Below, one piece after another: positions 501-58,149 of a DNA stretch of 64,000 nucleotides. The notes under the pieces were generated by a model, which worked only from the letters and a program-made list of their open reading frames with translations, was not told where the DNA came from and did no database searches. This stretch comes from Ryuthela nishihirai (Eukaryota; Arthropoda; Arachnida; Araneae; Heptathelidae). Within the stretch, counting starts at the first letter, position 1. Every line of letters begins with the position of its first letter. The stretch spans positions 62,001-126,000 of the forward strand of contig JAWZYU010000126.1 of NCBI GenBank assembly GCA_038380435.1, given 5' to 3'. The translations under genes were made by a program, and so were the position numbers.

Positions 501-1274
501 TTGGGTTGTTTTACCTCTGAGCTGCACTTTTTTGTACACCATGGGCTAAATGGCCAGGTCACAAGGACCCCGAAAGCTCAGAGAGGGTTGGGGGAGAGAC
601 CCACTGGAACAGCTGTTGGGAGACAGATGGTAGCCTCCCGTCAAGGCCATCCAGCGTGTTCTTTAACGTTGGGTTGTTTTATCTCTGAGCGGCACTTTTT
701 TGCACACCATGGGCTAAATGGCCAGGTCATATGGACCCCGAAGGCTCAGAGAAGGTTGAAGGAGGCGACCCACTGGAACAGCTGTTGGGAGACAGATGGT
801 AGCCTCCCGTCAAGGCCATCCAGCGTGTTCTTTAACGTTGGGTTGTTTTACCTCTGAGCTGCACTTTTTTGCACATCATGAGCTAAATGGCCAGGTCACA
901 TGGACCCCGAAGGCTCGGAGAAGGTTCGAGGAGGCGACCCACTGGAACAGATTTTGGGAAACAAATAGTAACCTCCCGTCAAGGCCATCCAGCGTGTTCT
1001 TTAACGTGCACAGGGTATGGCTCTCCCGCACACGGGCCACTGCTTAACGTCCCATCTGACGAATCGCGGCCTTTCGAAGACCCATCTGTGTCCCCTACTG
1101 CCCTGATGGGCGGGGAATTTTGAGAAGATAAATCTCAACGCTGACCCAGGTGGGATTCGAACCTGGGAACTGCAGAGTGACCAGGTGGGATTCGAACCTG
1201 GGAACTGCAGAGTGACCAGGTTCGAGTCTCACCATTACAAGCCTTGCGCGCTACCGACTGAGCCACTCCCACCC
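501..1274 (-). mobile_element. SINE-A with three tandem 3' modules and a 14-bp TSD
   Basis: The minus-strand copy has module starts at 501, 669 and 838 (168-169 bp period), then the core and a tRNA head. It is flanked by the perfect duplication TTTCTTTCGGAGAG at 487-500 and 1275-1288. The head contains an extra tandem duplication of its B-box segment (about 1143-1213). Confidence 0.93.
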
Positions 1275-1353
1275 TTTCTTTCGGAGAGAAACTTCCGAAA
1301 GGAAGAAATCATTATTTATAATAATGTTTAGCTGAGAGCAAAGCGACTTTGAG

Positions 1354-1480
1354 GGAGGGGCTTGTGGCTCTGCCTGGTAGAGCACAAAGCACGTAACCAG
1401 CAGTTACCAGGTTCGAGTCCTGTCGGTGCCAACGTTGAAATTTATCTTCGCTAATTTCCCACCCTGACCTCGATCAGAAA
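1354..1480 (+). mobile_element. Diverged tRNA-headed SINE fragment
   Basis: TGGCTCTGCCTGGTAGAGCA resembles a tRNA A-box arm, and GGTTCGAGTCCTGTC is a B box. AACGTTGAAATTTATCTTCG and the following CCACCCTGACC align loosely with the SINE-A core. It is an older or separate subfamily, truncated before the 25-bp minisatellite. Confidence 0.6.
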
Positions 1481-1489
1481 GGGGACTGA

Positions 1490-2195
1490 GTGTTCACAAT
1501 CCGTTTTAATTCGCTGATTGTTCATGATTCCAATTTTATCTCTGATTGTTCACGACTTGACTTGATTCGCTGATTGTTCGCGATCCGTCTGAATTCGCTG
1601 ATTGTTCATGTTATACGTTTTAATTTGCTAATTGTTCACGATCCGTCTTAATTTGATGGTTGTTCACGAACTGTTTTACTTCGTTGATTGTTCACGATCC
1701 GTGCTTATTCGCCTCTTTTCGCCGATTGTTTTCGATTAGCCTTTATTCGCTGATTGTTTTCGATCAGCCTTTATTCGCTGATTATTCACGATGCGTCTTT
1801 ATTCGTTGATTATTCACGACCCGCCTTTATTCGCCGATTGTTTTCGATCAGCCTTTATTCGCTGATTATTCACGATGCGTCTTTATTCGCTGATTATTCA
1901 CGATGCGTCTTTATTCGCTGATTATTCACGATCCACCTTTTTCGCTGATTGTTTTCGATCAGCCTTTATTCGCTGATTGTTTTCGATCAGCCTTTATTCG
2001 CTGATTATTCACGATGCGTCTTTAATCGCTGATTATTCACGATACGTCTTTATTCGCTGATTATTCACGATGCGTCTTTATTCACTGATTGTTCACGATA
2101 CGTCTTTATTCGCTGATTGTTCACGATACGTCTTTATTCGCTGATTATTCACGATACGTCTTTATTCGCTGATTGTTCACGATCTGTCTTAAAGG
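1490..2195. repeat. 25-bp-class minisatellite, locus 1
   Basis: About 27 degenerate units of the form TTCGCTGATTGTTCACGATC plus CGTCTTTA. Variants include ATTATTCACGATGCG and TTGTTTTCGATCAGC. The reverse complement of the same family occurs at 23490-24735. Confidence 0.93.
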
Positions 2196-2340: not shown

Positions 2341-2901
2341 AGGTTGTTGGGTTGTTTTACCTCTGGACGGCACTTTCTTGCACACCATGGGCTAAATGGC
2401 CAGGTCACAAGGACCCCGAAGGCTCAGAGAAGGTTGTAGGAGGGGACCCACTGGAACAGCTGTTGGGAGACAGATGGTAGCCTCCAGTCAGGGTCATACA
2501 GCGTGTTCCTTAACGTTGGGTTGTTTTACCTCTGGACGGCACTTTCTTGCACACCATGGGCTAAATGGCCAGGTCACAAGGACCCCGAAGTCTCAGAGAA
2601 GGTTGGATGAGGGGACCCACTGGAACAGCTGTTAGGAGACAGATGGTAGCCTCCCGTCAAGGCCATCCAGCGTGTTCTTTAACGTGCACAGTGTATGGCT
2701 CTCTCCCGTACACGGACCAACGGCTTAACGTCCCATCCGACGAACGGCGGCCTTTCCAAGCCCATCGGTGTCCCCTACTGACCGTGGGCAGGGCGGGGGA
2801 ATTTTGCGGAGATAAATCTCAACGCTGACCCAGCTGGGACTCGAACCTGGGAACTACAGATTACGAGCCTGGCGCGCTACCGACAGAGCCACCCCCGCCC
2901 C
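2341..2901 (-). mobile_element. SINE-A with two modules and a 10-bp TSD
   Basis: Two 3' modules start at about 2348 and 2517, followed by core and head ending GCCACCCCCGCCC. CTCCTCCAAT is repeated at 2331-2340 and 2902-2911, inside an older SINE-A. Confidence 0.9.
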
Positions 2902-3196
2902 CTCCTCCAATGGACATTTACAAAGAGCTACCAACTAAGAGATTAACAACTGGTGGAGTGGCCTGCATTCTCCCAAGATCGATCGCATGTTCCGGGAAGA
3001 TGTATTGCCACTCTTCAGCTCCTTCCGAAACCCCCCAGGACTTCAAGAATTACTGCTCATTGCTCAGGTGATTTTATAACTCTCTCATTCTCTGGATTAT
3101 CTTATTGAGGGCGTGAATCGAAGTTGTCAGACCCGCATTGGTGCTAGAGGGCATTAACTATTAACAATATATCGATTTTGCATTTCTTCTTTTCAG

Positions 3197-5987: not shown

Positions 5988-7020
5988 AGGGGGCGGGGGT
6001 GACTCAGTCTGTAGCGCGCCAGGCTCGTAATCTGTAGTTCCCAGGTTCGAGTCCTAGCTGGGTCAGCGTTGAGTTTATCTCCGCAAAATTCCCCGTCCTG
6101 CCCACGGTCAGTAGGGGACACCGATGGGCTTGGAAAGGCCGCCGTCCGTCGGATGGGACGTTAAGCTGTGGCCCCGTGTGCGGGAGAGCCATACCCTGTG
6201 CACGTTAAAGAACACGCTGAATGGCCTTGACGGGAGGCTACCATCTGTCTCGCAACAGCTGTTCCAGTGGGTCTCCTCCCCCAACCTTCTCTGAGCCTTC
6301 GGGGTCCTTGTGACCTGGCCATTTAGCCCATGGTGTGCAAAAAAGTGGCGCTCAGAGGTCTCAACGTTAAAGAACACGCTGGATGGCCTTGACGGGAGGC
6401 TACCATCTGTCTCCCAACAGCTGTTCCAGTGGGTCCCCTCCCCCAACCTTCTCTGAGCCTTCGGGGTCCTTGTGACCTGGCCATTTAGCCCATGGTGTGC
6501 AAAAAAGTGGCGCTCAGAGGTCTCAACGTTAAAGAACACGCTGGATGGCCTTGACGGGAGGCTACCATCTGTCTCCCAACAGCTGTTCCAGTGGGTCCCC
6601 TCCCCCAACCTTCTCTGAGCCTTCGGGGTCCTTGTGACCTGGCCATTTAGCCCATGGTGTGCAAAAAAGTGGCGCTCAGAGGTCTCAACGTTAAAGAACA
6701 CGCTGGATGGCCTTGACGGGAGGCTACCATCTGTCTCCCAACAGCTGTTCCAGTGGGTCCCCTCCCCCAACCTTCTCTGAGCCTTCGGGGTCCTTGTGAC
6801 CTGGCCATTTAGCCCATGGTGTGCAAAAAAGTGGCGCTCAGAGGTCTCAACGTTAAAGAACACGCTGGATGGCCTTGACGGGAGGCTACCATCTGTTTCC
6901 CAACAGCTGTTCCAGTGGGTCCCCTTCCCCAACCTTCTCTGAGCCTTCAGGGTTCTTGTGACCTGGCCATTTAGCCCATGGTGTGCAAAAAAGTGCCGCT
7001 CAGAGGTAAAACAACCCAAC
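5988..7020 (+). mobile_element. SINE-A with five modules of exactly 162 bp and an 11-bp TSD
   Basis: Head and core run to 6201. Modules then start at 6202, 6364, 6526, 6688 and 6850, all 162 bp apart. Internal junctions read GAGGTCTCAACGTTAAAG, so each internal module lacks the usual AAACAACCC tail. The target duplication CCGATCTTGAT lies at 5977-5987 and 7021-7031. The minus-strand 308-codon frame here is open only because 162 is divisible by three. Confidence 0.93.
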
Positions 7021-7505: not shown

Positions 7506-7510
7506 TGTTA

Positions 7511-8505
7511 GGTTGTTTTGTTTCTGAGCGACACTTTTTTGCACACCATGGGCTAAATGGCAAGGTCACAAGGACACCGAAGGCTCTGAGAAGGTTGAAA
7601 GAAGGGATTTGGGTTGGGTTGTTTTACCTCTGAGCGGCACTTTTTTGCACACCATGGGCTAAATGGCCAGGTCACAAGGACCCCGAAGGCTCAGAGAAGG
7701 TTGGTGGAGGGGTTGGGTTGTTTTACCTCTGAGCGGCACTTTTTTGCACACCATGGGCTAAATGGCTAGGTCACAAGGACACCGAAGGCTCTGAGAAGGT
7801 TGAGAGAAGGGATTTGGGTTGGGTTGTTTTACCTCTGAGCGGCACTTTTTTGCACACCATGGGCTAAATGGCCAGGTCACAAGGGCCCCGAAGGCTCAGA
7901 GAAGGTTGGTGGAGGGGTTGGGTTGTTTTACCTCTGAGCGGCACTTTTTTGCACACCATGGGCTAAATGGCTAGGTCACAAGGACACCGAAGGCTCTGAG
8001 AAGGTTGAGAGAAGCGATTTGGGTTGGGTTGTTTTACCTCTGAGCAGCACTTTTTTGCACACCATGGGCTAAATGGCCAGGTCACAAGGGCCCCGAAGGC
8101 TCAGAGAAGGTTGGTGGAGGGGTTGGGTTGTTTTACCTCTGAGCGGCACTTTTTTGCACACCATGGGCTAAATGGCCAGGTCACATGGACCCCGAAGGCT
8201 CAGAGAAGGTTGGGGGAGGGGACCCATTGGAACAGTTGTGGGGAGACAGATGGTAGCCTCCCGTCAAGGCCATCTAGTGTGTTCTTTAACGTGCACAGGG
8301 TATGGCTCTCCCACGCACGGATCCACAGCTTAACGTCCCATCCGACGGACGACGGTCTTTCCAAGCCCATCGGTGTCCCCTACTGACCGTGGGCAGGGCG
8401 GGGAATTTTGCGGAGATAAATCTCAACGCTGACCCAGTTGGGACTCGAACCTGGGAACTACAGATTACGAGCCAGGCGCGCTACCGATTGAGCCACCCCC
8501 GCTCC
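7511..8505 (-). mobile_element. SINE-A with seven modules, six of them truncated
   Basis: Module starts lie at about 7511, 7611, 7711, 7816, 7916, 8021 and 8121. Only the last continues into core and head. The truncated ones alternate between two types and form a 205-bp two-unit repeat (GAAGGGATTTGGGTTGGG against GGTGGAGGGGTTGGG junctions). Confidence 0.88.
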
Positions 8506-8828
8506 CAGGTCCATTGGAATAGTTGTTGGGAGACAAATGGTAGCCTCCCGTCAAGGCCATCCAGCATGTTCTTTAACGTGTACAGGTTATGGCTCTCCCG
8601 CACAAGGGGCCACGGCTTAACGTCCACGGCTTAACGGGGGGCTTAAGAGGCCACGACTTAACGTCCCATCCGACGGCGACCTTTCCAACACATCGGTGTC
8701 CCCTACTGACAGTGGGCAGGGCGGGGAATTTTCCGGAGATAAATCTCAACGCTGACCCAGTTGGGACTCGAACCTGGGAACTACAGATTAGGTGCATGGC
8801 GCGCTACCGACTGAGCCACCCCCGCCCC
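8506..8828 (-). mobile_element. SINE-A, 3'-truncated, with locally duplicated core
   Basis: It starts inside the module (CATTGGAATAGTTGTTGGG) and ends CCACCCCCGCCCC. CACGGCTTAACG text is repeated three times around 8612-8665. Confidence 0.85.
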
Positions 8829-10614: not shown

Positions 10615-10991
10615 TTGGGTTGTTTTACCTCTGAGCGGCACTTTTTTGCACACCATGGGCTAAATGGCCAGGTCACATGGACCCCGAAGGCTCAGAGAAG
10701 GTTGGGGGAGTGGACCCACTGGCTGTTCGGAGACAGATGGTAGCCTCCCGTCAAGGCCATCCAGCGTGTTCTTTAACGTGCACAGGGTATGGCTCTCCCA
10801 CACACGGGGCCACGGCTTAACGTCCCATCCGAAGGACGGCGGCCTTTCCAAGCCCATCGGTGTCCCCTACTGACCGTGGGAAGGGCGGGGAATTTTGCGG
10901 AGATAAATCTCAACGCTGACCCAGCTGGGACTCGAACCTGGGAACTACAGATTACGAGCCTGGCGCGCTACCGACTGCGCCACCCCCGCCC
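10615..10991 (-). mobile_element. SINE-A, one module, 13-bp TSD
   Basis: Full-length minus copy flanked by CTTCCACCAAGGG at 10602-10614 and 10992-11004. The module lacks four bases of the AACAGCTGTT segment. Confidence 0.93.
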
Positions 10992-12670: not shown

Positions 12671-12727
12671 CATAAATAACTGTTGGAAAAATACTTTAAA
12701 TTAGATTGAATATTTCTTTTTAGAGCG

Positions 12728-13265
12728 GGGTGGCTCAGTCGGTAGCGCGCCAGGCTCGTAATCTGTAGTTCCCAGGTTCGAGTCCCAGCTGGGTCAGCGT
12801 TGAGATTTATCTCCGCAAAATTCCCCGCCCTGCTCACGGTCAGTAGGGGACACCGATGGTCTTGGAAAGGCCGCCGTCCGTCGGATGGGACGTTAAGCCG
12901 TGGCCCCGTGTGCGGGAGAGACATACCCTGTGCACGTTAAAGAACACGCTGGATGGCCTTGACGGGAGGCTACCATCTGTCTCCGAACAGCCAGTGGGTC
13001 CCCTCCCCCAACCTTCTCTGAGCCTTCGGGGTCCATGTGACCTGGCCATTTAACTCATGGTGTCAAAAAAGTGCCGCTCAGAGGTAAAACAACCCAACGT
13101 TAAAGAACACGCTGAAGGACCTTGACGGGAGTCTATCATCTGTCTCCCAACAGCTGTTCCAGTGGGTCCCCTCCCCCAACCTTCTCTGAGCCTTCGGGGT
13201 CCATGTGACTTGGCCATTTAACTCATGGTGTCAAAAAAGTGCCGCTCAGAGGTAAAACAACCCAA
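12728..13265 (+). mobile_element. SINE-A with two modules and a 12-bp TSD
   Basis: Head, core and two modules joined at CAACCCAACGTTAAAG (about 13095). CTTTTTAGAGCG is repeated at 12716-12727 and 13266-13277. Both modules share the variants TAACTCATGGTGTC and missing GC before AAAAAAG, so the second was copied from the first locus or its source. Confidence 0.93.
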
Positions 13266-14725: not shown

Positions 14726-15186
14726 GACTGACACTTTTTCTTTTCAGGGTTTCTCCAATTCTGTGGAATTTTTAAAAAATAATTATTATTAATTTTTTTA
14801 TTTCAATATTTTAATGTTTCTAATGTAGAAAATTTATTGTAAGAAAACTAAGTTGTTTTATTATATATTGATGTTTACCACTGGACAGTAAACTGATGCT
14901 GCCGAAATTTACACATTGGAAATTTTTAGCAGAGCCTGGAAGGACAGTTGCCCCCTGGTTCACAATTGTAGAGACTACAATTATGTCTCTTTGAATTATT
15001 TTAATTTATTTTATTGTGGGTAGTCTTTGTGAATTGTTTTCTATATATGTTTTGTATTTATATAGTTATCTATTAAATTATTATTATTATGGAAAAAAAA
15101 TCCTGCATCTATGAGGTCCCAAGGGCACGGGATATTACAGTGCTCAGCGCTCTTTGCCAGTCCGTGCCTGTTCCTGTTAGATCTGG
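14726..15186. other. AT-rich unique sequence
   Basis: No gene or known repeat recognised. Confidence 0.55.
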
Positions 15187-16070
15187 GACGGGGGTGGCTC
15201 AGTCGGTAGCGCGCCAAGCTCGTAATCTGCAGTTCCCAGGTTCGAGTCCCAGCTGGGTCAGCGTTGAGATTTATCTCCGCAAAATTCCCCGCTCTGCCCA
15301 CGGTCAGTAGGGGACACCTATGGGCTTGGAAAGGCTGCAGCCCGTCGGATGGGACGTTAAGCCGTGGTCCCGTGTGCGAGAGAGCCATACCCTGTGCCCG
15401 TTAAAGAACACTCTGGATGGCCTTGACGGGAGGCTACCATCTGTCTCCCAACAGCTCTTCCAGTGGGTTCCCTCCTCCAAACTTCTCTGAGCCTTCGGGG
15501 TCCATGTGACCTGACCATTTAGCCCATGGTGTGCAAAAAAGTGCCGCTCAGAGGTAAAAGAAACCAACGTTAAAGAACACACTGGATGGTCTTGACGGGA
15601 GGCTACCATCTGTCTCCCAACAGCTGTTCCAATGGGTTTCCTCCCCCAAACTTCTCTGAGCCTTCGGGGTCCATATGACCTGGCCATTTAGCCCATGGTG
15701 TGCTAAAAAGTGCCGCTCAGAGGTAAAACAAACCAACGTTAAAGAACACACTGGATGGCCTTGACGGGAGGCTACCATCTGTCTCCCAACAGCTGTTCCA
15801 ATGGGTTCCCTCCCCCAAACTTCTCTGAGCCTTCGGGGTTCATATGACCTGGCCATTTAGCCCATGGTGTGCTAAAAAGTGCCGCTCAGAGGTAAAACAA
15901 CCCAACGTTAAAGAACACGCCGCATGGCCTTGACGGGAGGCTACCATCTGTCTCCCAACAGCTGTTCCAATGGGTTCCCTCCCCCAAACTTCTCCGAGCC
16001 TTCGGGGTTCATATGACCTGGCCATTTAGCCCATGGTGTGCTAAAAAGTGCAGCTCAGATGTAAAACAAG
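15187..16070 (+). mobile_element. SINE-A with four modules
   Basis: Head and core run to about 15398. Modules start at about 15399, 15568, 15737 and 15906 (169-bp period), joined at CAACGTTAAAG. Modules 2-4 share CCAATGGGTT and CATATGACCTGG variants not seen elsewhere, which indicates local copying. Confidence 0.9.
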
Positions 16071-16882: not shown

Positions 16883-17094
16883 CATACCTACTGATAAATA
16901 GATACTATTGTTGTTAGTAAATTGAATTCTATTATAACAAAATATTTGTTAGATAAATTTTAGCGTTTTATTTTTTTCTTAGAATCAAAGCTTTTTGTAT
17001 GTTGGTGGTGCTGAAATTTAGGTACGTCTTACAATTGATGGCGTCTTAAAATCGAAGAAATATGGCATATTAAATTTATACTCTGCTGGTTAGG

Positions 17095-17645
17095 GGCGGA
17101 GGTGGCTTAGTCGGTAGCGCGCCAGGCTCGTAATCTGTAGTTCCCAGGTTCGAGTCCCAGCTGGGTCAGCGCTGAGATTTATCTCTGCAAAACTCCCCGC
17201 CCTGCCCACGGTCGGTAGGGGACACCAATGGGTTTGGAAAGGGCTCCGTCCGCCGGATGGGACGTTAAGCCGTGGTCCCGTGTCCGGGAGAGCCATACCC
17301 TGTACACGTTAAGAAACGCGCTGGATGGCCTTGACGGGAGGCTACCATCTGTCTCTCAACAGCTGTTCCAGTGGGTCCCCTCCCCCAACCTTCTCTGAGC
17401 CTTCGGGGTCCATGTGACCTGGTCATTTAGCCCATGGTGTGCAAAAAAGTGCCGCTCAGAGGTAAAACAACCAACGTTAAAGAACACGGTGGATGGCCTT
17501 GACGGGAGGCTACCATCTGTCTCCCAACAGCTGTTCCAGTGGGTCCCCTCTCCCAACCTTCTCTGAGCCTTCGGGGTCCTTGTGACCTGGCTATTTAGCC
17601 CATTGTGTGCAAAAAAGTGCCGCTCAGAGGTAAAACAATCCAATC
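17095..17645 (+). mobile_element. SINE-A with two modules
   Basis: Head GGGGCGGAGGTGGCTTAGTC, core, and two modules joined at CAACCAACGTTAAAG (about 17470). Confidence 0.9.
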
Positions 17646-18848: not shown

Positions 18849-19395
18849 GTTGGGTTGTTTTACCTCTGAGCGGCACTTTTTTTTTGCACACCATGGGCTA
18901 AATGGCCAGGTCACATGGACCCAGAAGGCTCAGAGAAGGTTGGGGGAGGGGACCCACTGGAACAGATGTTAGGAGACAGATGGTAGCCTCCCGTCAAGGC
19001 CATCCAGAGTATTCTTTAAAGTTGGGTTGTTTTACCTCTGAGCGGCACTTTTTTGCACACCATGGGCTAAATGGCCAGGTCACGTGAACTCCGAAGGCTC
19101 AGAGAAGTTTGGGGGAGGGGACCCACTGGAACAGATGTTGGGAGACAGATCGTAGCCTCCCGTCAAGGCCATCCAGTGTGTTCTTTAACGTGCACAGGGT
19201 ATAGCTCTCCCGCACACGGGGCCACGGCTTAACGTCCCATCCGACGGACGGCGGCCTTTCCAAGCCCATCGGTGTCACCTACTGACCGTGGGCTGGGCGG
19301 GGAATTTTGCGGAGATAAATCTCAACGCCGACCCAGCTGGGACTCGAACCTGGGAACTACAGATTACGAGCGCGCTACCGACTGAGCCACCCCCG
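18849..19395 (-). mobile_element. SINE-A with two modules
   Basis: Minus copy. Modules start at about 18849 and 19023, then core and head end GCCACCCCCGCCCC. The head has a short deletion (GAGCGCGCTACC). Confidence 0.9.
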
Positions 19396-19610
19396 CCCCA
19401 AATAGTGTATGGACTACTTCATAGGTTAATATCTCCTTCCATGACGAGGGGCATTAGAAAAATAAATAGGGGTGCACTGGTAAATAACGATTCGGAACCA
19501 TAAGTTCAAAACAATGAAGTGTGCATAGAAGCAATTGAGACAATGAAGACTGCAAAGATACATCGAATAGATCAGTGATTTCCAAAGAGAGCGCTTCGTC
19601 CCCAAATGGA

Positions 19611-24735: not shown

Positions 24736-24768
24736 TGTTTACCTTACTAGAAATTCCTGTCCTTGCTG

Positions 24769-25150
24769 GGGCGGGGGTGGCTCAGTCGGTAGCGCGCCAG
24801 GCTAGTAATCTGTAGTTCCCATGTTCGAGTCCCAGCTGGGTCAGCGTTGAGATTTATCTCCGCAAAGTTCCCCGCCCTGCCCACGGTCAGTAGGGGACAC
24901 CGATGGGCTTGGAAAGGCCGCCGTCCGTCGGATGGGACGTTAAGCCGTGGCCCCGTGTACGGGAGAGCCATACCCTGTGTACGTTAAAGAACACGCTGGA
25001 TGGCCTTGACGGGAGGCTACCTTCTGTCTCCCAACAGCTGTTCCAGTGGGTCCCCTCCCTCAACCTTCTCTGACCCTTCGGGATCCATGTACCTGGCCAT
25101 TTAGCCCATGGTGTGCAAAAAAGTGCCGCTCAGAGGTAAAACAACCCAAC
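24769..25150 (+). mobile_element. SINE-A, one module, 13-bp TSD
   Basis: Full plus copy flanked by CCTGTCCTTGCTG at 24756-24768 and 25151-25163. Confidence 0.94.
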
Positions 25151-25547: not shown

Positions 25548-25998
25548 TGGGTTGGGTTTTACCTCTGAGCATCACTTTTTTTGCACACCATGGATTAATG
25601 GCCAGGTCACAAGGGTTGGGTTGTTTTACCTCTGAGCGGCACTTTTTTGCACACCATGGGCTAAATGGCCAGGTCACATGGACCCCGAAGGCTCAGAGAA
25701 GGTTGGGGGAGGGGACCCACTGGAACAGCTGTTGGGAGACAGATGGTAGCCTCTCGTCAAGGCCATCCAGCGTGTTCTTTGACGTGCACAGGCTATGGCT
25801 CTCTCACACACGGAGTAACAGCTTAACGTCCCATCCGACGGACGGCGGCCTTTCCAAGCCCATTGTATCCCCTACTGACCGTGAGCAGGGCGGGGAATTT
25901 TGCGGAGAAAAATCTCAACGCTGACCCAGCTGGGACTGGAACCTGGGAACTACAAATTACGAACCTGGCGCGCTACCGACTGAGCCACCCCCGCCCCA
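25548..25998 (-). mobile_element. SINE-A with one short and one full module
   Basis: A 65-bp partial module (25548-25612, ending GGTCACAAGG) joins GGTTGGGTTG of a full minus copy that ends GCCACCCCCGCCCC. It lies about 200 bp before integrin exon B. Confidence 0.88.
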
Positions 25999-34200: not shown

Positions 34201-35965
34201 TTCACTTTTTGCTGGCCCTCGAGAGTTTCCATTTACCACCTCAAGACTACTATTTTCTCTTGCAATTCTAAAAAAAGCTCATTTTTTGCTGACCCTCGAG
34301 AGTTTCCATTTACCAACTCAAGACTATTTTCCCTTGCAATTCTGAAAATAGCTCACTTTTTGTTGACACTCGAGAGTTTCCATTTACCACCTCAAGACTA
34401 CTATTTTCTCTTGCAATTCTAAAAAAAAATTCACTTTTTGCTGACTCTCGAGAGTTTCCATTTACTACCTCAAGACTACTATTTTCCCTTGCAATTCTAA
34501 AAAAAAAAACACTTTTTGCTGACCCTCGAGAGTTTCCATTTACCACCTCAAGACTACTATTTTCCCAGGCAATTCTAAAAAAACTCACTTTTTGTTGACC
34601 TTCGAGAGTTTCCATTTACCACCTCAAGACTACTATTTTCTCTTGCAATTCTAAAAAAAAACTCGCTTTTTGCTGACCCTCGAGAGTTTCCATTTACCAC
34701 CTCAAGACTACTATTTTCCCTTGCAATTCTAAAAAAAACCCACTTTTTGTTGACCCTCGAGAGTTTCCATTTACCACCTCAAGACTACTATTTTCCCTTG
34801 CAATTCTAAAAAAACCCCACTTTTTGTTGACCCTCGAGAGTTTCCATTTACCACCTCAAGACTGTTTTCTCTTGCAATTCTAAAAAAACCCCACTTTTTG
34901 TTGACCCTCGAGAGTTTCCATTTACCACCTCAAGACTGTTTTCTCTTGCAATTCTAAAGAGCTCACTTTTTGCTAACCTCGAGAGTTTCCATTTACCACC
35001 TCAAGACTACTATTTTCTCTTGCAATTCTAAAAAAAACTCGCTTTTTGCTGACCCTCGAGAGTTTCCATTTACCACCTCAAGACTACTATTTTCCCTTGC
35101 AATTCTAAAAAAAACTCGCTTTTTGCTGACCCTCGAGAGTTTCCATTTACCACCTCAAGACTACTATTTTCCCTTGCAATTCTAAAAAAAAACCCACTTT
35201 TTGTTGACCCTCGAGAGTTTCCATTTACCACCTCAAGACTTTTCTCTTGCAATTCTAAAGAGCTCACTTTTTGCTAACCTCGAGAGTTTCCATTTACCAC
35301 CTCAAGACTACTATTTTCTCTTGCAATTCTAAAAAAGCTCACTTTTTGCTGAACCCTCGAGTTTCCAATTACTACCTGAAGACTACTATTTTCTCTTGCA
35401 ATTCTAAAGAGCTCACTTTTTGCTGGCCCTCGAGAGTTTCCATTTACCACCTCCTCAAGACTATTTTCTCTTGGAATTCTAAAAAAAAAACTAACTTTTT
35501 GCTGACCCTCGAGAGTTTCCATTTACCACCTCAAGACTACTATTTTCTCTTGCAATTCTAAAAAAAAAGCTCTTTTTTCTGAACCCTCGAGTTTCCATTT
35601 ACCACCTGAAGACTACTATTTTTCTCTTGCAATTCTAAAGAGCTCATTTTTGCGGGCCCTCGAGAGTTTCCATTTACCACCTCAGGACTACTATTTTCTC
35701 TTGCAATTCTAAAAAAAGCTCACTTTTTTCTGAACCCTCGAGTTTCATTTACCACCTGAAGACTACTATTTTCTCTTGCAATTCTAAAGAGCTCATTTTT
35801 GCTGGCCCTCGAGAGTTTCCATTTACCACCTCAAGACTACTATTTTCTCTTGCAATTCTAAAGAGCTCACTTTTTGCTGACCTCGCGAGTTTCCATTTAC
35901 CACCTCAAGACTATTCTTTTCTCTTGCAATTCTAAAAAAAGCTCACTTTTTTGCTGGCCCTCGAG
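34200..35965. repeat. 77-bp minisatellite array
   Basis: About 22 units of CTCACTTTTTGCTGACCCTC, GAGAGTTTCCATTTACCACC, TCAAGACTACTATTTTCTCT, TGCAATTCTAAAAAA. Unit length varies with the A-run and with loss of ACTACTA. Confidence 0.93.
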
Positions 35966-36370
35966 AGTTTCCTATCTATCGCATAACCAGTACTTTTTTC
36001 TCTTGCAATCCATAAGAGTTCGCTTTTTTTATGGCTCTCTAAAGTTTCCACCTACTGTCCCAAGATTACTTTTTCTTTTCTTGCTACTCTAAAGAGTTTA
36101 CTTTTTGCTGGCTCTAGAGAATTTCCCATCTACCGCCTCGTGTATTTCTTTCGCTTGCAAACCTAAGTGTTAACTTGTTTTCCTTGGCCCTCTAAAGTTT
36201 CCATCTCCTACCTAAAGAGTATTTTTTTTCTTCTGCAATTCTAAAGTGTACAGTTTTTTGCTGGCCCTCGAGAGTTTCCTATCTACTGGCTCAAGAGTAA
36301 CTTTTTCTCTCTTAGAACCATAAAGAGTTTTCTTTTAGCCAACGTCTAAAGTCTCCATCTACCGCCTCAA
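35966..36370. repeat. Decayed edge of the 77-bp array
   Basis: Diverged units (CTCTAAAGTTTCCA, CTGGCCCTCGAGAGTTTCC) up to a SINE-A insertion. Confidence 0.75.
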
Positions 36371-40839: not shown

Positions 40840-41831
40840 TGGGTTGGGTTGTTTTACCTCTGAGCGGCACTTTTTTTGCACACCATGGGCTAAATGGCCA
40901 GGTCACATGGACCCCGAAGACTCAGAGAAGGTTGGGGGAGGGGACCCACTGGAACAGCTGTTGTGAGACAGATGGTTGCCTCCCGTCAAGGCCATCCAGC
41001 GTGTTCTTTAACGTTGGGTTGTTTTACCTCTGAGCGGCACTTTTTTGCACACCATGGGCTAAATGGCCAGGTCACATGGACCCCGAAGACTCAGAGAAGG
41101 TTGGGGGAGGGGACCCACAGGAAAAGCTGTTGTGAGACAGATGGTTGCCTCCCTTCAAGGCCATCCAGCGTGTTCTTTAACGTTGGGTTGTTTTACCTCT
41201 GAGCGGCACTTTTTTGCACACCATGAGCTAAATGGCCAGGTCACATGGACCCCGAAGACTCAGAGAAGGTTGGGGGAGGGGACCCATTGGAACAGCTGTT
41301 GTGAGACAGATGGTTGCCTCCCGTCAAGGCCATCCAGCGTGATCTTTAACGTTGGGTTGTTTTCCCTCTGAGCAGCACTTTTTTGCACACCATGGGCTAA
41401 ATGGCCAAGTCCCATGAACCCCGAAAGCTCAGAGAAGGTTGGGGGAGAGGTTGTTTTACCTCTGAGCGGCACTTTTTTGCACACCATGGGCTAAATGGCC
41501 AGGTCACATGGACCCCGAAGGCTCAGAGAAGGTTGGGGGAGGGGACCCACTGGAACAGCTGTTGGGAGACAGATGGTTGCCTCCCGTCAATGCCATCCAT
41601 CGTGATCTTTAACGTGCACAGGTTATGGCTCTCCCGCACACGGAGCCACGGATTAACATCCCGTCCGACGGACGGCGGCCTTTCCAAACCCATCGGTGTC
41701 CCCCTACTGACCGTGGGCAGGGCGGGAAATTTTTGCGGAGATAAATCTCAACGTTGACCCAGCTGGGACTCGAACCTAGGAACTACAGATTACGAGCCTG
41801 GCGCGCTACCGACTGAGCCACCCCCGCCCCA
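40840..41831 (-). mobile_element. SINE-A with five modules and a 10-bp TSD
   Basis: Modules start at about 40845, 41014, 41183, 41352 and 41450 (the fourth is short), then core and head. AGCCCTGGGA flanks it (40830-40839 and 41832-41841). The first three modules share CGAAGACTCAGAG and TTGTGAGACAGATGGTTGCC. Confidence 0.93.
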
Positions 41832-43397: not shown

Positions 43398-46345
43398 GAG
43401 CAGCTACGAAGCCGATCTGTTCCCACAAGGCTAAAACTAAGTGCTGGGGACCGGATCTCTTACCACAAGGCCAGAGCTAAGTGCTGGGATCCCTATCTGT
43501 TATCACAATAAGACTACAACTAAGTGTTAAGAACTCGATCTGTTACCCCAACAGGGTCAAAACTAAGTGCTGGGAACCGGATCTGTTACCTCAAGGCCAC
43601 AGCTAAATGCTGGGAACCCGATCTGTTATCACAATAAGACTATAACTAAGTGTTAAGAACCCGATCTGTTACCCCAACAGGGCCAAAACTAAGTGCTGGG
43701 AACCGTATATGTTACCACAAGGCCAGAGCTAAGTGCTGGGAACCCTATCTGCTATCACAATAAGACTACAACTAAGTGTTAAGAACCCGATCTGTTACCC
43801 CAACAGGGCCAAAACTAAGTGCTGGGGACCGGATCTCTTACCACAAGGCCAGAGCTAAGTGCTGGGATCCCTATCTGTTGTCACAATAAGACTACAACTA
43901 AGTGTTAAGAACCCGATCTGTTACCCCAACAGGGTCAAAACTAAGTGCTGGGAACCGGATCTGTTACCTCAAGGCCACAGCTAAATGCTGGGAACCCGAT
44001 CTGTTATCACAATAAGACTATAACTAAGTGTTAAGAACCCGATCTGTTACCCCAACAGGGCCAAAACTAAGTGCTGGGAACCGTATATGTTACCACAAGG
44101 CCAGAGCTAAGTGCTGGGAACCCTATCTGCTATCACAATAAGACTACAACTAAGTGTTAAGAACCCGATCTGTTACCCCAACAGGGCCAAAACTAAGTGC
44201 TGGGGACCGGATCTCTTACCACAAGGCCAGAGCTAAGTGCTGGGATCCCTATCTGTTATCACAATAAGACTACAACTAAGTGTAAAGAACCCGATCTGTT
44301 ACCCCAACAGGGTCAAAACTAAGTGCTGGGAACCGGATCTGTTACCTCAAGGCCACAGCTAAATGCTGGGAACCCGATCTGTTATCACAATAAGACTATA
44401 ACTAAGTGTTAAGAACCCGATCTGTTACCCCAACAGGGCCAAAACTAAGTGCTGGGAACCGTATATGTTACCACAAGGCCAGAGCTAAGTGCTGGGAACC
44501 CTATCTGCTATCACAATAAGACTACAACTAAGTGTTAAGAACCCGATCTGTTACCCCAACAGGGCCAAAACTAAGTGCTGGGGACCGGATCTCTTACCAC
44601 AAGGCCAGAGCTAAGTGCTGGGATCCCTATCTGTTATCACAATAAGACTACAACTAAGTGTTAAGAACCCGATCTGTTACCCCAACAGGGTCAAAACTAA
44701 GTGCTGGGAACCGGATCTGTTACCTCAAGGCCACAGCTAAATGCTGGGAACCCGATCTGTTATCACAATAAGACTACAACTAAGTGTTAAGAACCCGATC
44801 TGTTACCCCAACAGGGTCAAAACTAAGTGCTGGGGACCGGATCTGTTACCTCAAGGCCACAGCTAAATGCTGGGAACCCGATCTGTTATCACAATAAGAC
44901 TATAACTAAGTGTTAAGAACCCGATCTGTTACCCCAACAGGGCCAAAACTAAGTGCTGGGAACCGTATATGTTACCACAAGGCCAGAGCTAAGTGCTGGG
45001 AACCCTATCTGCTATCACAATAAGACTACAACTAAGTGTTAAGAACCCGATCTGTTACCCCAACAGGGCCAAAACTAAGTGCTGGGGACCGGATCTCTTA
45101 CCACAAGGCCAGAGCTAAGTGCTGGGATCCCTATCTGTTATCACAATAAGACTACAACTAAGTGTTAAGAACCCGATCTGTTACCCCAACAGGGTCAAAA
45201 CTAAGTGCTGGGAACCGGATCTGTTACCTCAAGGCCACAGCTAAATGCTGGGAACCCGATCTGTTATCACAATAAGACTACAACTAAGTGTAAAGAACCC
45301 GATCTGTTACCCCAACAGGGTCAAAACTAAGTGCTGGGAACCGGATCTGTTACCTCAAGGCCACAGCTAAATGCTGGGAACCCGATCTGTTATCACAATA
45401 AGACTATAACTAAGTGTTAAGAACCCGATCTGTTACCCCAACAGGGCCAAAACTAAGTGCTGGGAACCGTATATGTTACCACAAGGCCAGAGCTAAGTGC
45501 TGGGAACCCTATCTGCTATCACAATAAGACTACAACTAAGTGTTAAGAACCCGATCTGTTACCCCAACAGGGCCAAAACTAAGTGCTGGGGACCGGATCT
45601 CTTACCACAAGGCCAGAGCTAAGTGCTGGGATCCCTATCTGTTATCACAATAAGACTACAACTAAGTGTTAAGAACCCGATCTGTTACCCCAACAGGGTC
45701 AAAACTAAGTGCTGGGAACCGGATCTGTTACCTCAAGGCCACAGCTAAATGCTGGGAACCCGATCTGTTATCACAATAAGACTACAACTAAGTGTTAAGA
45801 ACCCGATCTGTTACCCCAACAGGGTCAAAACTAAGTGCTGGAGACCGGATCTGTTACCACAAGGCCAGAGCTAAGTGCTGGGATCCCTATCTGTTATCAC
45901 AATAAGACTACAACTAAGTGTTAAGAACCCGATCTGTTACCCCAACAGGGTTAAAACTAAGTGCTGGGGACCGGATCTGTTACCTCAAGGCCAGAGCTAA
46001 GTGCTGGGAACCCTATCTGTTATCACAATAAGACTACAACTAAGTGTTAAGAACCCGATCTTTTACGCCAACAGCGCCAAACCTAAGTGCCGGGGACCGG
46101 ATCTGTTACCACAAGGCCAGTGCTAAGTGCTGGGAACCTTATCTATTATCACAATAAGACTACAAGTAAGTGTTAAGAACCCGGATCTGTTACCACAGCA
46201 AGGGTCAGAACGTACTCTTTAAGCCCCTGCTGTAATTTTGCTAGTTCCCTACCCCTTTCACTGGAAACATTATCTTACTGGAACCGATCTGCTGGGAACC
46301 CGATCTGTTACCACAACAGGTTCAGAACTAAATGCTGGGAACCGG
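43398..46345. repeat. 42-bp satellite with 126-bp trimers and a higher-order period
   Basis: Three 42-bp monomers follow one another: GTGCTGGGAACCGGATCTGT..., GCTGGGAACCCGATCTGTTA... and TGTTAAGAACCCGATCTGTT.... Each carries GATCTGTTA and CTAA(G/A). The marker GGGGACCGGATCTCTTACC recurs at spacings of 378, 378, 378, 504 and 504 bp (43441, 43819, 44197, 44575, 45079, 45583), that is three or four trimers. Units decay after about 45900. Confidence 0.95.
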
Positions 46346-52186: not shown

Positions 52187-52458
52187 ATCATGATGCTTAA
52201 TAAAATTTTATTACTTCGACATGAAAGATCATTGGAAACTACAATTTCTGCGGTTAGAGACGTGAAAAGGTCTTCAATTGTTTTGTTTGCAAGTTATATT
52301 GTGACTGTATCACACTAGCGTAAGCAATTAAGACCATGAGATTCCATTGTTGGCGAGACGACAGCGGAGAAGGAAGAAACTCATGAAGAAATGCAAAATC
52401 GGATCATAAAAAAATCAAGCTGAAACAACAGTTACTTAATATATTATTGTATATGGAT

Positions 52459-53755
52459 TGGGTTGTTTTACCTCTGAGCGGCACTTTTTTACACACCATT
52501 GGCTAAATGGCCAGGTCACAAGGACCCGAAGGCTTAGAGAAGGTTGGGGGAGGGGACCCACTGGAATAGCTATTGGGAGACAGATGGTAGCCTCCCGTCA
52601 AGGCTGTCCAGTGTGTTCTTTAACGTGCTCAGAATTGGATTGTTTTACCTCTGAGCGGCACTTTTTTACACACCATGGGCTAAATGGCCAGGTCACAAGG
52701 ACCCGAAGGCTCAGAGAAGGTTGGGGGAGGGGACCCACTGAAACTGCTGTTGGGAGACAGATGGTAGCCTCCCGTCAAGGCTATCCAGTGTGTTCTTTAA
52801 CGTGCACAGAATTGGGTTGTTTTACCTCTGAGCGGCACTTTTTTACACACCATGGGCTAAATGGCCAGGTCACAAGGACCCGAAGGCTCAGAGAAGGTTG
52901 GGGGAGGGGACCCACTGAAACTGCTGTTGGGAGACAGATGGTAGCCTCCCGTCAAGGCTATCCAGTGTGTTCTTTAACGTGCACAGAATTGGGTTGTTTT
53001 ACCTCTGAGCGGCACTTTTTTACACACCATGGGCTAAATGGCCAGGTCACAAGGACCCGAAGGCTCAGAGAAGGTTGGGAGAGGGGACCCACTGAAACTG
53101 CTGTTGGGAGACAGATCATAGCCTCCCGTCAAGGCTATCCGGTGTGTTCTTTAACGTGCAGATAATTGGGTTGTTTTACCTCTGAGCGGCACTTTTTTAC
53201 ACACCATGGGCTAAATGGCCAGGTCACAAGGACCCGAAGGCTCAGAGAAGGTTGGGGGAGGGGACCCACTGAAACTGCTGTTGGGAGACAGATGGTAGCC
53301 TCCCGTCAAGGCTATCCAGTGTGTTCTTTAACGTGCACAGAATTGGGTTGTTTTACCTCTGAGCGGCACTTTTTTACACACCATGGGCTAAATGGCCAGG
53401 TCACAAGGACCCGAAGGCTCAGAGAAGGTTGGGGGAGGGGACCCACTGAAACTGCTGTTGGGAGACAGATCATAGCCTCCCGTCAAGGCTATCCGGTGTG
53501 TTCTTTAACGTGCAGATAATTAGGTTGTTTTACCTCTGAGCGGCACTTTTTTACACACCATGGGCTAAATGGCCAGGTCACAAGGACCCGAAGGCTCAGA
53601 GAAGGTTGGGGGAGGGGACCCACTGAAACTGCTGTTGGGAGACAGATCATAGCCTCCCGTCAAGGCTATCCAGTGTGTTCTTTAACGTGCAAAGAATTGG
53701 GTTGTTTTATCTCTGACCGGCAGTTTTTTGCACATCATCGGCTAAATGGCCAGGT
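52459..53755 (-). repeat. Headless tandem array of SINE-A modules, 177-bp unit
   Basis: Seven full units and one partial unit start at about 52459, 52635, 52812, 52989, 53166, 53343, 53520 and 53697. Each runs from TTGGGTTGTTTTACC to CGTGCACAGAA, so the junction differs from that in the other arrays. Locus-specific changes (TTTTTTACACACC, AAGGACCCGAAGG, ACTGAAACTGC) are shared by nearly all units. No core or head is present. Because 177 is divisible by three, a 235-codon frame stays open by chance. Confidence 0.94.
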
Positions 53756-53927
53756 TATAAAGAATCAAGTAGTCTACGGTACTACTTGAGAACTCGTACT
53801 CTACACTGGCGGCATTTCCTACTCATTTCCAGAACGATGTTTTCGCCAAAAATGTCGGCACTTGCATCTTCTGCCAGATTATTTTTTCTCAATAATCGCA
53901 CGTCTTCAGATTCTCCCAGATTGTTAG

Positions 53928-54480: not shown

Positions 54481-54807
54481 TCTCTTTTGTTGCGATCTTA
54501 TGCAACCACGGCAATTCCCGGTTCCGCTTGTACAGCACTACCTGGTTATGAAAAGCCGTGCTTATCTAGAGCCGGGGGCAAGGAATACGCCATATAGGCG
54601 CACCTCAACCCCAGCCTCACATGGCAGCAGTCCTATAGAAGGAAAGCTGACCACCGGAAGAAACCATACTTTAATCTATTCCCCGGTTTGCAAATGTGCA
54701 AGGATATATAGATCCAAGCTCGATCGGCACCCGGGGTGGAGACTCTTAGTAGGACCCGGACTTTTGAAAGGTCTCTGGCTTACTAGGAGCCAATCCCGTT
54801 CTGTAAC
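54481..54807 (+). other. Unique segment with a possible LINE C-terminal finger relic
   Basis: One plus frame reads RNHTLIYSPVCKCARIYRSK then LDRHPG. C-x-C-x-R-x-(C/Y)-R-S-x4-(L/D)-x-x-H resembles the C-terminal Cys/His finger found after some LINE-type reverse transcriptases. The match is weak and the remaining sequence is not recognised. Confidence 0.25.
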
Positions 54808-55932
54808 AGTGGGTCCCCTCTCCCAACCTTCTCTGAGTCTATGGGGTCCTTGTGACCTGGCCATGTAGCCCGTGGTGTGCAAAAAAAGTGCCGCTCAAAG
54901 GTAAAACAACCCAACGTTAAAGAACACGCTGGATGGCCTTGACGGGAGGCTACCATCTGTCTCCTAACAGCTGTTCCAGTGGGTCCCCTCTCTCACCTTC
55001 TCTGAGCCTACGGGGTCCTTGTGACCTGGCCATTTAGCCCGTGGTGTGCAAAAAAGTGCCGCTCAGAGGTAAAACAACCCAACGTTAAAGAACATGCTGG
55101 ATGGCCTTGACAGGAGGCTACCATCTATCTCCTAACAGCTGTTCCAGTGGGTCCCCTCTCCCAACCTTCTCTGAGCCTACGGGGTCCTTGTGACCTGGCC
55201 ATTTAGCCCGTGATGTGCAAAAAAAGTGCCGCTCAGAGGTAAAACAAGCCAACGTTAAAGAACATGCTGGATGGCCTTGACGGGAGGCTACCATCTGTCT
55301 CCTAATAGCTGTTCCAGTGGGTCCCCTCTCCCAACCTTCTCTGAGCCTACGGGGTCCTTGTGACCTGGCCATTTAGCCCGTGGTGTGCAAAAAAAGTGCC
55401 GCTCAAAGGTAAAACAACCCAACGTTAAAGAACACGCTGGATGGCCTTGACGGGAGGCTACCATCTGTCTCCTAACAGCTGTTCCAGTGGGTCCCCTCTC
55501 CCAACCTTCTCTGAGCCTACGGGGTCCTTGTGACCTGGCCATTTAGCCCGTGGTATGCAAAAAAAGTGCCGCTCAAAGGTAAAACAACCCAACGTTAAAG
55601 AACACGCTGGATGGCCTTGACGGGAGGCTACCATCTGTCTCCTAACAGCTGTTCCAGTGGGTCCCCTCTCCCAACCTTCTCTGAGCTTACGGGGTCCTTG
55701 TGAGCTGGCCATTTAGCCCGTGGTGTGCAAAAAAGTGCCGCTCAGAGGTAAAACAACCCAACGTTAAAGAACACGCTGCATGGCCGTGACGGGAGGCTAC
55801 CATCTGTCTCCTAACAGCTGTTCCAGTGGGTCCCCTCTCTCAACCTTCTCTGAGCCTACGAGGTCCTTGTGACCTGGCCATTTAGCCCGTGGTGTGCAAA
55901 AAAAGTGCCGCTCAGAGGTAAAACAACCCAAA
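54808..55932 (+). repeat. Headless tandem array of SINE-A modules, 169-170-bp unit
   Basis: A partial module is followed by six units starting at about 54914, 55083, 55253, 55423, 55593 and 55761, joined at CAACCCAACGTTAAAG. All share GAGCCTACGGGG, TTTAGCCCGTGG and CTCCTAACAGC. Neither core nor tRNA head is present. Confidence 0.94.
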
Positions 55933-57431
55933 TTAGTAAACTGTCACTGTTTTACTCGATGTGTATTTAATCAATTTAGGGAAGAAAATTACATCTAAAC
56001 TCCCTCTGTGCCTCTTTTTTTTTACACCGTTATCACGTGATGAGTGGGTGCTATGTCGTGCTACCGTCTACACCTTCACTGCACGTAGGAGGGAGGTAGC
56101 AACGAGAGCGAGTAGATATTTTTAGAGCAGTCTTAAAGAAATTCAAGCACAGAGCCCAAATTTGTGTTTTCTACCTGCTCCTGGATGCTGAGATAGAGGC
56201 GTGGGTGCTCCGTGAGAGACAGAAAACGTTAAGAGAGTATGATCGGTTGAATGAAAAAACTTACATGTAATGTAGATGAGGAAACTTGACATCATGTGGT
56301 AGATGTCATTTATGACTGTCGCTTGTAAATCTTAAAGCTATCAGACAACCTTAAATGGTTCGCGATTCCAAGAATCACGTTTTTTGCGTAGGTGTTAGTG
56401 GTTTATTTATTTACGTTAACCTGTTGAATGTTAATTCATCTGTTTATCTCTGTCGTAGGTTTTTACGTGTGTCTTAATCTTAGCAAAGTTCTTTCAGTCT
56501 ATTTGGCCAGTGGGTTCTCGCAACAGGGCAGTCCCTATGGAAAGCTTTTGGAATTTTGGGAGCTTTTGATTTGACAAAACGATGTGGGAGTGGAGAGGGC
56601 AAGATCACCTTGAAAAATCCCCTTGATCAAAAGGAGGGAAAGAAGAGATATTAAATAAATATATTAAAATGATTTATTAATTACGATTTTTTAAATTATG
56701 ATAAAGTGATTACGAATTTTTTTATAAATTAATAACTACCGGTAATTTTATTAGCAAATAGAATTCAAATAAAAGCAGATATATGTTTCAAAAATCAATC
56801 AATTCTTCTATTATTGCACTGTACAAGCCTAATATGATATAAAAGGTTTCGGAAATTTTTTGGTTGTCGGGGGGAGGGTGGGGCTTCAGTCATCTGGTTT
56901 CTGATGGTTTTATGCAGGAAAAATTAGACCTTTCTTGGATAGGGTATTCGGAAATAGTCATTAATAAAAGGAAGCGTTAGGAAAACATACAATCAACAAG
57001 GCCCGAATGTAGAAAAAAAAATGTGGGGAAACTGGATTTCGGTTATACTGAAATATTCCCCCCCCCCCTCTTTTAGAAATATAAATTTTTTTTTAAAAAT
57101 GCAATGAAAAATTACTAAGTTTTATAATTTTTGCATTATTTTCTTTACAATTATTCTGAAAGGGGGATAGGGGAGACATGTCCCCTCCACTACTTAGATC
57201 CGCACCACTTCGATTCGAACTCTCAATTAACAGGGATGTTGGGAGACGGTGAACGAGGTCAGGGATAACCCAAAATGACGGTTAACTAAAACGAGCCACA
57301 ATATGGTACAAAATGGATTTAATGTAAACCTATTAATTTAAAATTGCGTCCATTGTTTAGGAACACATTTATCTTACTAAGACATCACAAAAAAGTTTAA
57401 AAATAATAAAAGATAATGGTTCAGTAAAGGG
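55933..57431. other. Unique AT-rich sequence, 1.5 kb
   Basis: No exon, RNA gene or repeat recognised. A C10 run lies at about 57059-57068. Confidence 0.5.
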
Positions 57432-58149
57432 TTGGGTTGTTTTACTCTGAGCGGCACTTTTTTGCACACCATGGGCTAAATGGCCAGGTCACATGGACCC
57501 CGAAGGCTCAGAGAAGGTTGGGGGAGGGGACCCACTGGAACAGCTGTTGGGAGACAGATGGTAGCCTCCCGTCAAGGCCATCCAGCGTGTTCTTTAACGT
57601 TGGGTTGTTTTACCTCTCAGCGGAACTTGTTTGCACACCATGGGCTAAATGGCCAGGTCACAAGGACCCCGTAAGCTCAGAGAAGGTTGGCAGAGGGAAC
57701 ACTGGAACAGCTGTTAGGAGACAGATGGTAGCCTCCTGTCAAGGCCATCCAGCGTGTTCTCTAACGTTGGGTTGTTTTACCTCTGAGCGGCACTTTTTTT
57801 TCACGCAATGGACTAAATGGCCAGGTCACAAGGACCCCGAAGGCTCAGAGAAGGTTGGGGGAGGGGATCCAATGGAACAGCTGTTGGGAGACACATGGTA
57901 GCCTCCCGTCAAGGCCATCCAGTGTGTTATTTAACGTGCACAGGGTATGGCTCTCCCGCACACGGGGCCACGGCTTAACGTCCCATCCGACGGACGGCGG
58001 CCTTTCCAAGCCCATCGGTGTCCCCTACTGACCGTGGGCAGGCGGGAAATTTTTGCGGAGATAAATCTCAACCCTGACCCAGCTGGGACTCGAACCTGGG
58101 AACTACAGATTACGAGCCTGGCGCGCTACCGATTGAGCCACCCCGCCCC
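57432..58149 (-). mobile_element. SINE-A with three modules and an 11-bp TSD
   Basis: Modules start at about 57432, 57600 and 57768, then core and head. The flanks are TCAGTAAAGGG (57421-57431) and TCAGGAAAGGG (58150-58160). The three modules differ from one another more than those in the homogeneous arrays. Confidence 0.93.

What the first reader, a model, noticed from the sequence alone, without database searches (positions are those of the whole stretch)
501..58149. A modular SINE whose 3' domain exists as monomer to heptamer, with several multimers inside one TSD pair
Seen: SINE-A copies with 2, 3 or 5 tandem modules are each enclosed by one target duplication (501-1274, 2341-2901, 5988-7020, 12728-13265, 40840-41831, 57432-58149). 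At many unrelated loci the junction is the same (CAACCCA|ACGTTAAAG). Inference: a dimeric or multimeric master may be retrotransposed as such, or the reverse transcriptase may jump templates at a fixed point. Variants shared only within a locus (15399-16070, 40845-41450) show that local expansion also happens. I know of no SINE with this degree of domain-number polymorphism, but that was not searched.
Basis: partly seen in the sequence, partly recalled or inferred. Interest (0 to 1): 0.8.

Follow-up and report, generated by a model that had tools for sequence, protein, structure and literature searches.

The report
SINE with a repeatable tail domain
A very abundant short mobile element in this large genome carries one to eight tandem copies of its tail half behind a single promoter half, and the multi-tailed forms seem to jump as ready-made units, which suggests one way in which satellite DNA arrays could be seeded.

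Summary
The window is packed with a tRNA-headed SINE (213-bp head, 169-bp 3' module). Of 44 head-bearing copies in the window, 11 have two or more module segments; in 264 kb, 49 of 151. Multi-module copies carry target-site duplications as often as one-module copies (19 of 36; 34 of 66; null 0.5%). The junction CCCA|ACGTTAAAG has 42,870 exact copies genome-wide, against 68 with one more tail repeat, although 28 of 134 outer 3' ends have that repeat: probably one founding junction, copied since. In 22 of 33 dimers the modules share no derived variant (8.4 expected if duplication were spread over the copy's life), so most dimers arrived as dimers. Some arrays grew in place: the pentamer's variant junction was found nowhere else. 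Recurrent template jumping at a fixed point is disfavoured. Spread by gene conversion is not excluded, and multimers are unevenly distributed. No positional signature of masters was found. Best reading: a new variant of a known kind, a SINE transposing with a variable number of promoterless 3' domains, between SINE and satellite.

The parts
500..1274 (-). SINE-A copy, head (with a 35-bp internal duplication) + 3 modules, 14-bp TSD
2346..2903 (-). SINE-A dimer, 10-bp TSD; the modules share 4 derived variants
5988..7020 (+). SINE-A pentamer, 11-bp TSD; four internal junctions GAGGTCTCA|ACG with no other exact match in the genome: expanded in place
7507..8506 (-). SINE-A head + full module + six half modules (starts at about module 71-81); no TSD found
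12727..13265 (+). SINE-A dimer, TSD CTTTTTAGAGCG; module 1 shares a 5-nt deletion with the copy at 10616-10779, 2 kb away (likely local gene conversion)
15185..16069 (+). SINE-A head + 4 modules, 3' end cut, no TSD found; modules 2-4 share variants
17093..17642 (+). SINE-A dimer, no TSD found; modules not closer to each other than to other loci
18851..19399 (-). SINE-A dimer, no TSD found
25548..25997 (-). SINE-A head + module + partial module from about position 105; no TSD found
40843..41831 (-). SINE-A head + module + half module + 3 modules, 10-bp TSD; modules share locus variants
52457..53763 (-). headless array of about 7.4 modules, period 177, junction with 8-nt spacer (CCCAATTCTGTGC|ACG); each full module nearest to its own locus
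54801..55931 (+). headless array of about 6.6 modules, period 170; each full module nearest to its own locus
57431..58149 (-). SINE-A trimer, 11-bp TSD with one mismatch; modules of two marker types (T,T,A at module position 107)
60092..61121 (+). tandem array of the head (about 152-bp unit: one partial, four complete) ending in one full SINE-A; 8-bp TSD CTGGAGGA
24768..25148 (+). typical one-module SINE-A copy with 13-bp TSD (reference anatomy: head 213 bp, module 169 bp)

Best explanation
SINE-A is a tRNA-headed SINE whose 169-bp 3' module became tandem once, or very few times, when the element's own 3' end (...CCCAAC) was joined to an internal site (ACGTTAAAG) over a 2-nt overlap (AC). Copies with this junction remain transcribable: one internal pol III promoter in the head, no TTTT in the head or module consensus. 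They are retrotransposed as whole multi-module RNAs, each insertion making one TSD and a fresh variable tail. Module number then changes by unequal exchange or slippage between near-identical modules, in the source copies or in place; some loci go on into satellite-like arrays. Shown: anatomy, TSDs, single dominant junction, age pattern, in-place growth at some loci. Inferred: that the template is a multimeric RNA, that the founding event was single, and the exchange mechanism.
For: TSDs at equal rates in multi- and one-module copies with intact ends, 19 of 36 and 34 of 66, null 0.5%; on another contig, C1, 14 of 22 multimers (same score, no separate null; one of the 14, L021, is an AT-rich low-complexity match with mismatches). 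One exact junction: 42,870 against 68 with an extra tail repeat, while 28 of 134 outer 3' ends carry that repeat and TSD-delimited tails are diverse. 22 of 33 dimers have no shared derived variant, 8.4 expected under duplication at a uniform time after insertion; pooled and corrected, about 12% of module history is shared. Young TSD-bounded dimers: L037 0.6% and L031 0.9% from consensus, the latter with different marker bases in its two modules. 5'-truncated multimers with TSDs: L050 (head from 42, three modules, 12 bp) and L049 (head from 104, five modules, 11 bp), two of six 5'-truncated multimers. Head divergence does not differ between mono- and multimers (P = 0.54). No TTTT and an intact B box in the consensus. 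Module numbers from two upward are close to geometric, p = 0.51.
Against: No positional signature of masters: position test P = 0.86, shared rare variants at the same index 21 of 56 against 16.7 expected. Strong regional unevenness: J1 / head exact matches 31/36 in 264 kb, 42,870/216,285 genome-wide, 7/100 in the first 6.6 Mb of C1; transposition alone would predict an even ratio. Adjacent modules agree at marker 107 more often than chance (AA 50, TT 30, AT 8, TA 9, CA 1, headless arrays included), so homogenisation or common descent within a copy is common. 11 of 33 dimers do share derived variants. The share of multimers rises slightly with age tercile (12/37, 15/41, 13/31), not significantly. 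The age test covers dimers only, and not every dimer in it has a TSD. No transcript was seen.
Confidence: 0.68

Rival explanations
1. Template jumping at each insertion: the LINE reverse transcriptase stalls at the hairpin just 5' of ACGTTAAAG and jumps to the 3' end of another SINE RNA, adding modules each time.
For: The junction lies at the base of a predicted hairpin (-12.5 kcal/mol) and has an AC overlap with the 3' end; rare other junctions (module positions 24, 40, 71-81, 87-89, 105, 112) also join a complete 3' end to an internal site; the take-offs near 71-75 and 105 lie near predicted structure peaks at one setting; seven or eight headless copies keep only the last stretch of the head, so reverse transcription may often stop in that area (30 nt of flank read); markers are mixed within a young copy (L031).
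Against: The structure test is not robust: P = 0.02 to 0.34 over 12 settings. 5' truncations of 37 head-bearing copies are spread over head positions 14-178, and none of 27 headless copies clearly starts at the junction (one, at region position 263428, is ambiguous). The junction lacks the tail variants that 28 of 134 outer 3' ends have (68 against 42,870). Copies whose only extra modules are partial carry no TSD (0 of 6), the rest do (19 of 30) (split by me after seeing it).
Confidence: 0.1
2. In-place expansion only: monomers or dimers insert and grow by unequal crossing-over or slippage.
For: Clear at 5988-7020 (variant junction only there) and at 52457-53763 and 54801-55931 (each full module nearest to its own locus); likely at 40843-41831 (3 of 4 modules); homogeneity at marker 107; 11 of 33 dimers share derived variants.
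Against: Cannot easily make the same exact junction at tens of thousands of places from monomers; 22 of 33 dimers lack shared variants; young multimers exist; no significant dependence on age (P = 0.54).
Confidence: 0.1
3. Interlocus exchange: the junction spreads into resident monomers by gene conversion or unequal exchange between dispersed copies, leaving the old TSD in place.
For: Multimers are concentrated in some stretches, among them SINE-rich C126; one likely local conversion: a 5-nt deletion shared by 12934-13096 and a copy 2 kb away and by no other of 249 modules in 264 kb; mixed markers.
Against: Rare variants shared by exactly two loci are not significantly enriched among neighbours under 5 kb: modules 6.7% against 3.7%, P = 0.16; heads P = 0.37. 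TSD-bounded dimers occur where the 3-kb locus holds no other SINE-A (L028, L048). 5'-truncated multimers with TSDs.
Confidence: 0.12

Closest known systems
PcH-sat of the limpet Patella caerulea, a satellite from the 3' part of a Nin-SINE (PMC11121367; passages and one stretch, part 2 of 6)
   Same: A 179-bp unit made of the 3' end of a tRNA-headed SINE with a short stretch (26 bp) of the Nin domain at its 5' end; tandem; interspersed SINE pieces as well.
   Different: Described as pericentromeric satellite lacking the pol III boxes; no TSD-bounded head-bearing multimers are described in the parts I read. Letters of PcH-sat were not available, so homology to this module was not tested.
SINE-derived satellites of squamates, sSat (PMC10702118; outline, passages, background and discussion seen)
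   Same: Tandem arrays of part of a SINE, mostly with a longer terminal unit that reaches the SINE's end.
   Different: Described as satellite-like loci linked to subtelomeres; 'TSD' and 'target site duplication' do not occur in the main text; the authors report no true dimeric Squam SINEs.
Multimers of whole SINEs: Dip of Allactaga, B2 of mouse (PMC8466645, passages)
   Same: Head-to-tail SINE tandems, up to eight units in Dip, holding almost half of Dip copies.
   Different: Units are whole SINEs (Dip, B1, B2); here only the promoterless 3' domain repeats behind one head.
Dimeric SINEs such as Alu (named in PMC10702118 discussion) and cockroach Sbg9 (PMC9191728 passages)
   Same: A composite is transposed as one unit.
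   Different: Composed of two units in a fixed arrangement; here the number of 3' units varies.

Membership tests
tRNA-derived SINE | tRNA-like head with pol III boxes | tested here: met
   nine Rfam tRNA matches at gathering score, all within heads; three ARAGORN hits in heads; B box GGTTCGAGTCC. My A-box pattern found nothing because it was one position too short; by eye TGGCTCAGTCGG fits TRGYNNARNNGG (recalled)
tRNA-derived SINE | target-site duplications and short simple tail | tested here: met
   (53 of 102 copies with intact ends)
tRNA-derived SINE | 3' end shared with a partner LINE | tested here: inconclusive
   one RT fragment was looked at (L012:5946-6968, RVT_1); a GATGAT-rich stretch follows it and nothing links it to the module
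Nin-DC SINE superfamily | conserved Nin central domain | not tested
   resemblance of GGACGTTAA...GCACGTTAAAGAAC is recalled; no reference sequence was available
satellite DNA | long, homogenised head-to-tail arrays | tested here: not met
   most copies have 1-3 modules; approached only by rare long arrays such as C1 189.8-194.0 kb
SINE transposed as a multimer | multimer enclosed by one TSD pair, with modules not younger than the insertion | tested here: met
   (for most dimers, not for every multimer)
SINE transposed as a multimer | multimeric transcript | not testable with these tools
   no RNA data

The most novel reading that the evidence does not exclude
The number of 3' domains (presumably the part the LINE machinery recognises) is a variable, heritable trait of the transposing RNA itself. 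Retrotransposition scatters ready-made tandem arrays across the genome, some of which then grow into satellites. This would solve the 'first duplication' step of satellite birth without any new illegitimate event at each locus.
Probability: 0.45. Interest if true: 0.72.

Novelty: new variant of a known kind. Interest (0 to 1): 0.55.

Why it matters
How a satellite gets its first tandem duplication is an open question. Here one junction, with more than 40,000 exact copies, links a mobile SINE to tandem arrays from two modules to about twenty, so seeding by transposition can be separated from growth in place locus by locus. It also asks whether extra copies of a 3' domain help or hinder a SINE in using the LINE machinery.

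Tried and rejected
RNA-stall model: a predicted-structure barrier profile looked good at one setting, but P ranged from 0.02 to 0.34 over 12 settings; not used as evidence. The 5-nt deletion in module 1 of 12727-13264 first looked like proof of mixing between RNAs; only that copy and one 2 kb away carry it among 249 modules, and a 22-nt string with it has one exact match genome-wide (the neighbour differs by one base, so other carriers could be missed): local conversion is likelier. Position-specific clustering was looked for twice and not found. Partner LINE: a shared 215-bp repeat around module positions 27-169 at region positions 102164 and 170444 continues past the SINE end and was not identified. 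IMG/VR contigs hold no exact match to the junction or module string, GTDB contigs none to the module string. The dna= form of the genome search gave nothing; the tool says that common words are skipped. Whole-genome counts not obtained because the machine stayed busy: junction of 52457-53763, head-array junction (91, 102, 105, 109), short-tail junction (89, 94, 110).

Rows dropped before counts: one search uses only copies with both ends intact (102); only modules that start at position 5 or before and reach 157 (249); one search leaves the C1 stretch L022-L026 (at locus edges) out of its totals; one search uses 33 head-bearing dimers with two near-full modules (19 of the 26 two-module copies in 264 kb, and 14 from C1), with CpG and two subfamily sites masked; one search counts junctions only where the upstream module reaches position 160, which leaves out the pentamer's four.
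Full report
What is there. The window belongs to a 3.11-Gb genome of 1680 contigs (G000, contig C126). My guess of a gastropod mollusc rests on recall of Nin-type SINEs and on the contig numbers with positions of tens of Mb (up to C34), and is untested. About 38% of the window and 32% of the 264 kb that I could read (window plus L001-L020) is one SINE, here SINE-A. Its head is 213 bp, tRNA-like with a B box. Its module is 169 bp, from ACGTTAAAG to AACAACCCA, followed by a short variable tail.

In the window 44 copies have a head and at least one module, 11 of them with two or more module segments. In 264 kb the numbers are 102 with one, 26 with two, 11 with three, 4 with four, 4 with five, 1 with six, 2 with seven and 1 with eight; 78 segments were head only and 27 had no head. 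From two modules upward the counts are close to geometric.

TSDs. I scored TSDs in the 102 copies with both ends intact. One-module copies: 34 of 66. Multi-module copies: 19 of 36. Flanks of different copies paired at random reach the score in 0.5% of 3000 draws. On contig C1, in loci fetched only because they hold the junction, 14 of 22 multimers away from the locus edges score as TSD-bounded; one of these, L021, is an AT-rich low-complexity match. Six of the 22 are 5'-truncated in the head; two of the six have TSDs and are still multimeric, L050 with three modules and L049 with five.

The junction. Of 122 module-to-module junctions in the sample whose upstream module reaches position 160, 108 restart at module position 1-5; 7 of those 108 are the spacer type of 52457-53763. 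The other 14 restart at positions 24, 40, 71-81, 87, 89, 105 and 112. The main junction occurs 42,870 times exactly in the genome, the head-to-module boundary 216,285 times. The same junction with one more tail repeat occurs 68 times, although 28 of 134 outer 3' ends in the sample have that extra repeat. If junctions were made anew by jumping onto 3' ends, the tail variety should show in them. It hardly does. I conclude one founding junction, or very few.

Ages. For 33 head-bearing dimers I counted derived variants, with CpG sites and two subfamily sites left out: 20 shared, 253 private. 22 dimers share none, 11 share at least one; duplication at a uniformly random time after insertion would leave 8.4 without. 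Modules of unrelated dimers share 0.07 per pair. So in most dimers the two modules have been separate for about as long as the copy has existed. Heads of mono- and multimers are equally diverged (P = 0.54). Young examples: L037 (0.6% from consensus, 13-bp TSD) and L031 (0.9%, 12-bp TSD, modules with A and T at marker 107).

Growth in place also happens. The pentamer at 5988-7020 has a junction variant with four exact matches in the genome, all inside it. In the arrays at 52457-53763 and 54801-55931 each full module is nearest to another of its own locus (7 of 7 and 6 of 6), at 40843-41831 3 of 4 are. A stretch of C1 (189.8-194.0 kb) holds up to 20 module segments in one 3-kb locus.

What speaks against a simple story. 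Modules do not cluster by position (P = 0.86; 21 of 56 against 16.7 expected). Multimers are unevenly spread: 31 junctions to 36 heads in 264 kb, 0.20 genome-wide, 7 to 100 in the first 6.6 Mb of C1. I cannot explain this by transposition alone; exchange in SINE-rich stretches, or loss of extra modules in recombining arms, may add to it. Rare variants shared between two loci are not significantly enriched among neighbours (P = 0.16 for modules, 0.37 for heads), so conversion between neighbours is not shown to be general, although one case is likely. The structure-based stall model gave P = 0.02-0.34 depending on settings and is not used. 5' truncations do not fall on the junction, but seven or eight of 27 headless copies keep only the last stretch of the head, so some stopping in that area is possible.

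Mechanism. Most likely: one illegitimate joining of the element's 3' end to ACGTTAAAG made a two-module SINE that is still a legal pol III unit (no TTTT in the consensus). It has been retrotransposed since, side by side with the one-module form, and exchange between near-identical modules changes the number in source copies and in place.

Known relatives. SINE multimers and SINE-derived satellites are in print: Dip and B2 tandems (PMC8466645, passages), squamate sSats (PMC10702118, outline, passages, background and discussion), PcH-sat of limpets from a Nin-SINE 3' part (PMC11121367, passages and one stretch of text), dimeric Sbg9 (PMC9191728, passages). In nine answered searches of the held library I saw no description of a SINE transposed with a variable number of 3' domains; most listed papers were seen as listings only. 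The key paper on Nin-DC SINEs (Piskurek and Jackson 2011) was seen only as a reference in PMC11121367, and a DOI that I recalled for a 2016 paper on mollusc SINEs was not held. Hence: a new variant of a known kind.

Noticed in passing
60092-61121: The head (about 152 bp) is itself tandem, one partial and four complete units, ending in a full SINE, within an 8-bp TSD; its junction was not counted genome-wide (tool busy).
   Followed up: partly
10616-10779 and 12934-13096: Two modules 2 kb apart on opposite strands share a 5-nt deletion and a substitution seen together in no other of 249 modules in 264 kb: likely gene conversion between neighbours.
   Followed up: yes
region positions 102164-102301 and 170444-170580 (region = window followed by L001-L020): Another repeat carries module positions 27-169 between its own upstream (GCATCTATGTTGATGGTG) and downstream sequence; about 215 bp, 95% alike; family unknown.
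   Followed up: partly
L022-L026 (C1 189,799-194,046): A long array near the start of contig C1, up to 20 module segments per 3-kb locus, with a recurring irregular unit (1-40 then 8-169), perhaps subtelomeric.
   Followed up: no
L012:5946-6968: Reverse transcriptase fragment (RVT_1, E 3.4e-31) followed by a GATGAT-rich stretch; no link to SINE-A found.
   Followed up: partly
L005:4095-9062 (minus strand): A 1656-residue open frame; its start looks like a retroelement polyprotein (by eye), left unread.
   Followed up: no
27910-32937, 34176-36313, 43408-46194: Other long tandem arrays (periods 50, 77 and 126 bp) make up about 10 kb of the window.
   Followed up: no
C1 first 6.6 Mb against C126: The ratio of junction to head exact matches varies about twelvefold between regions (7/100 and 31/36).
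   Followed up: partly
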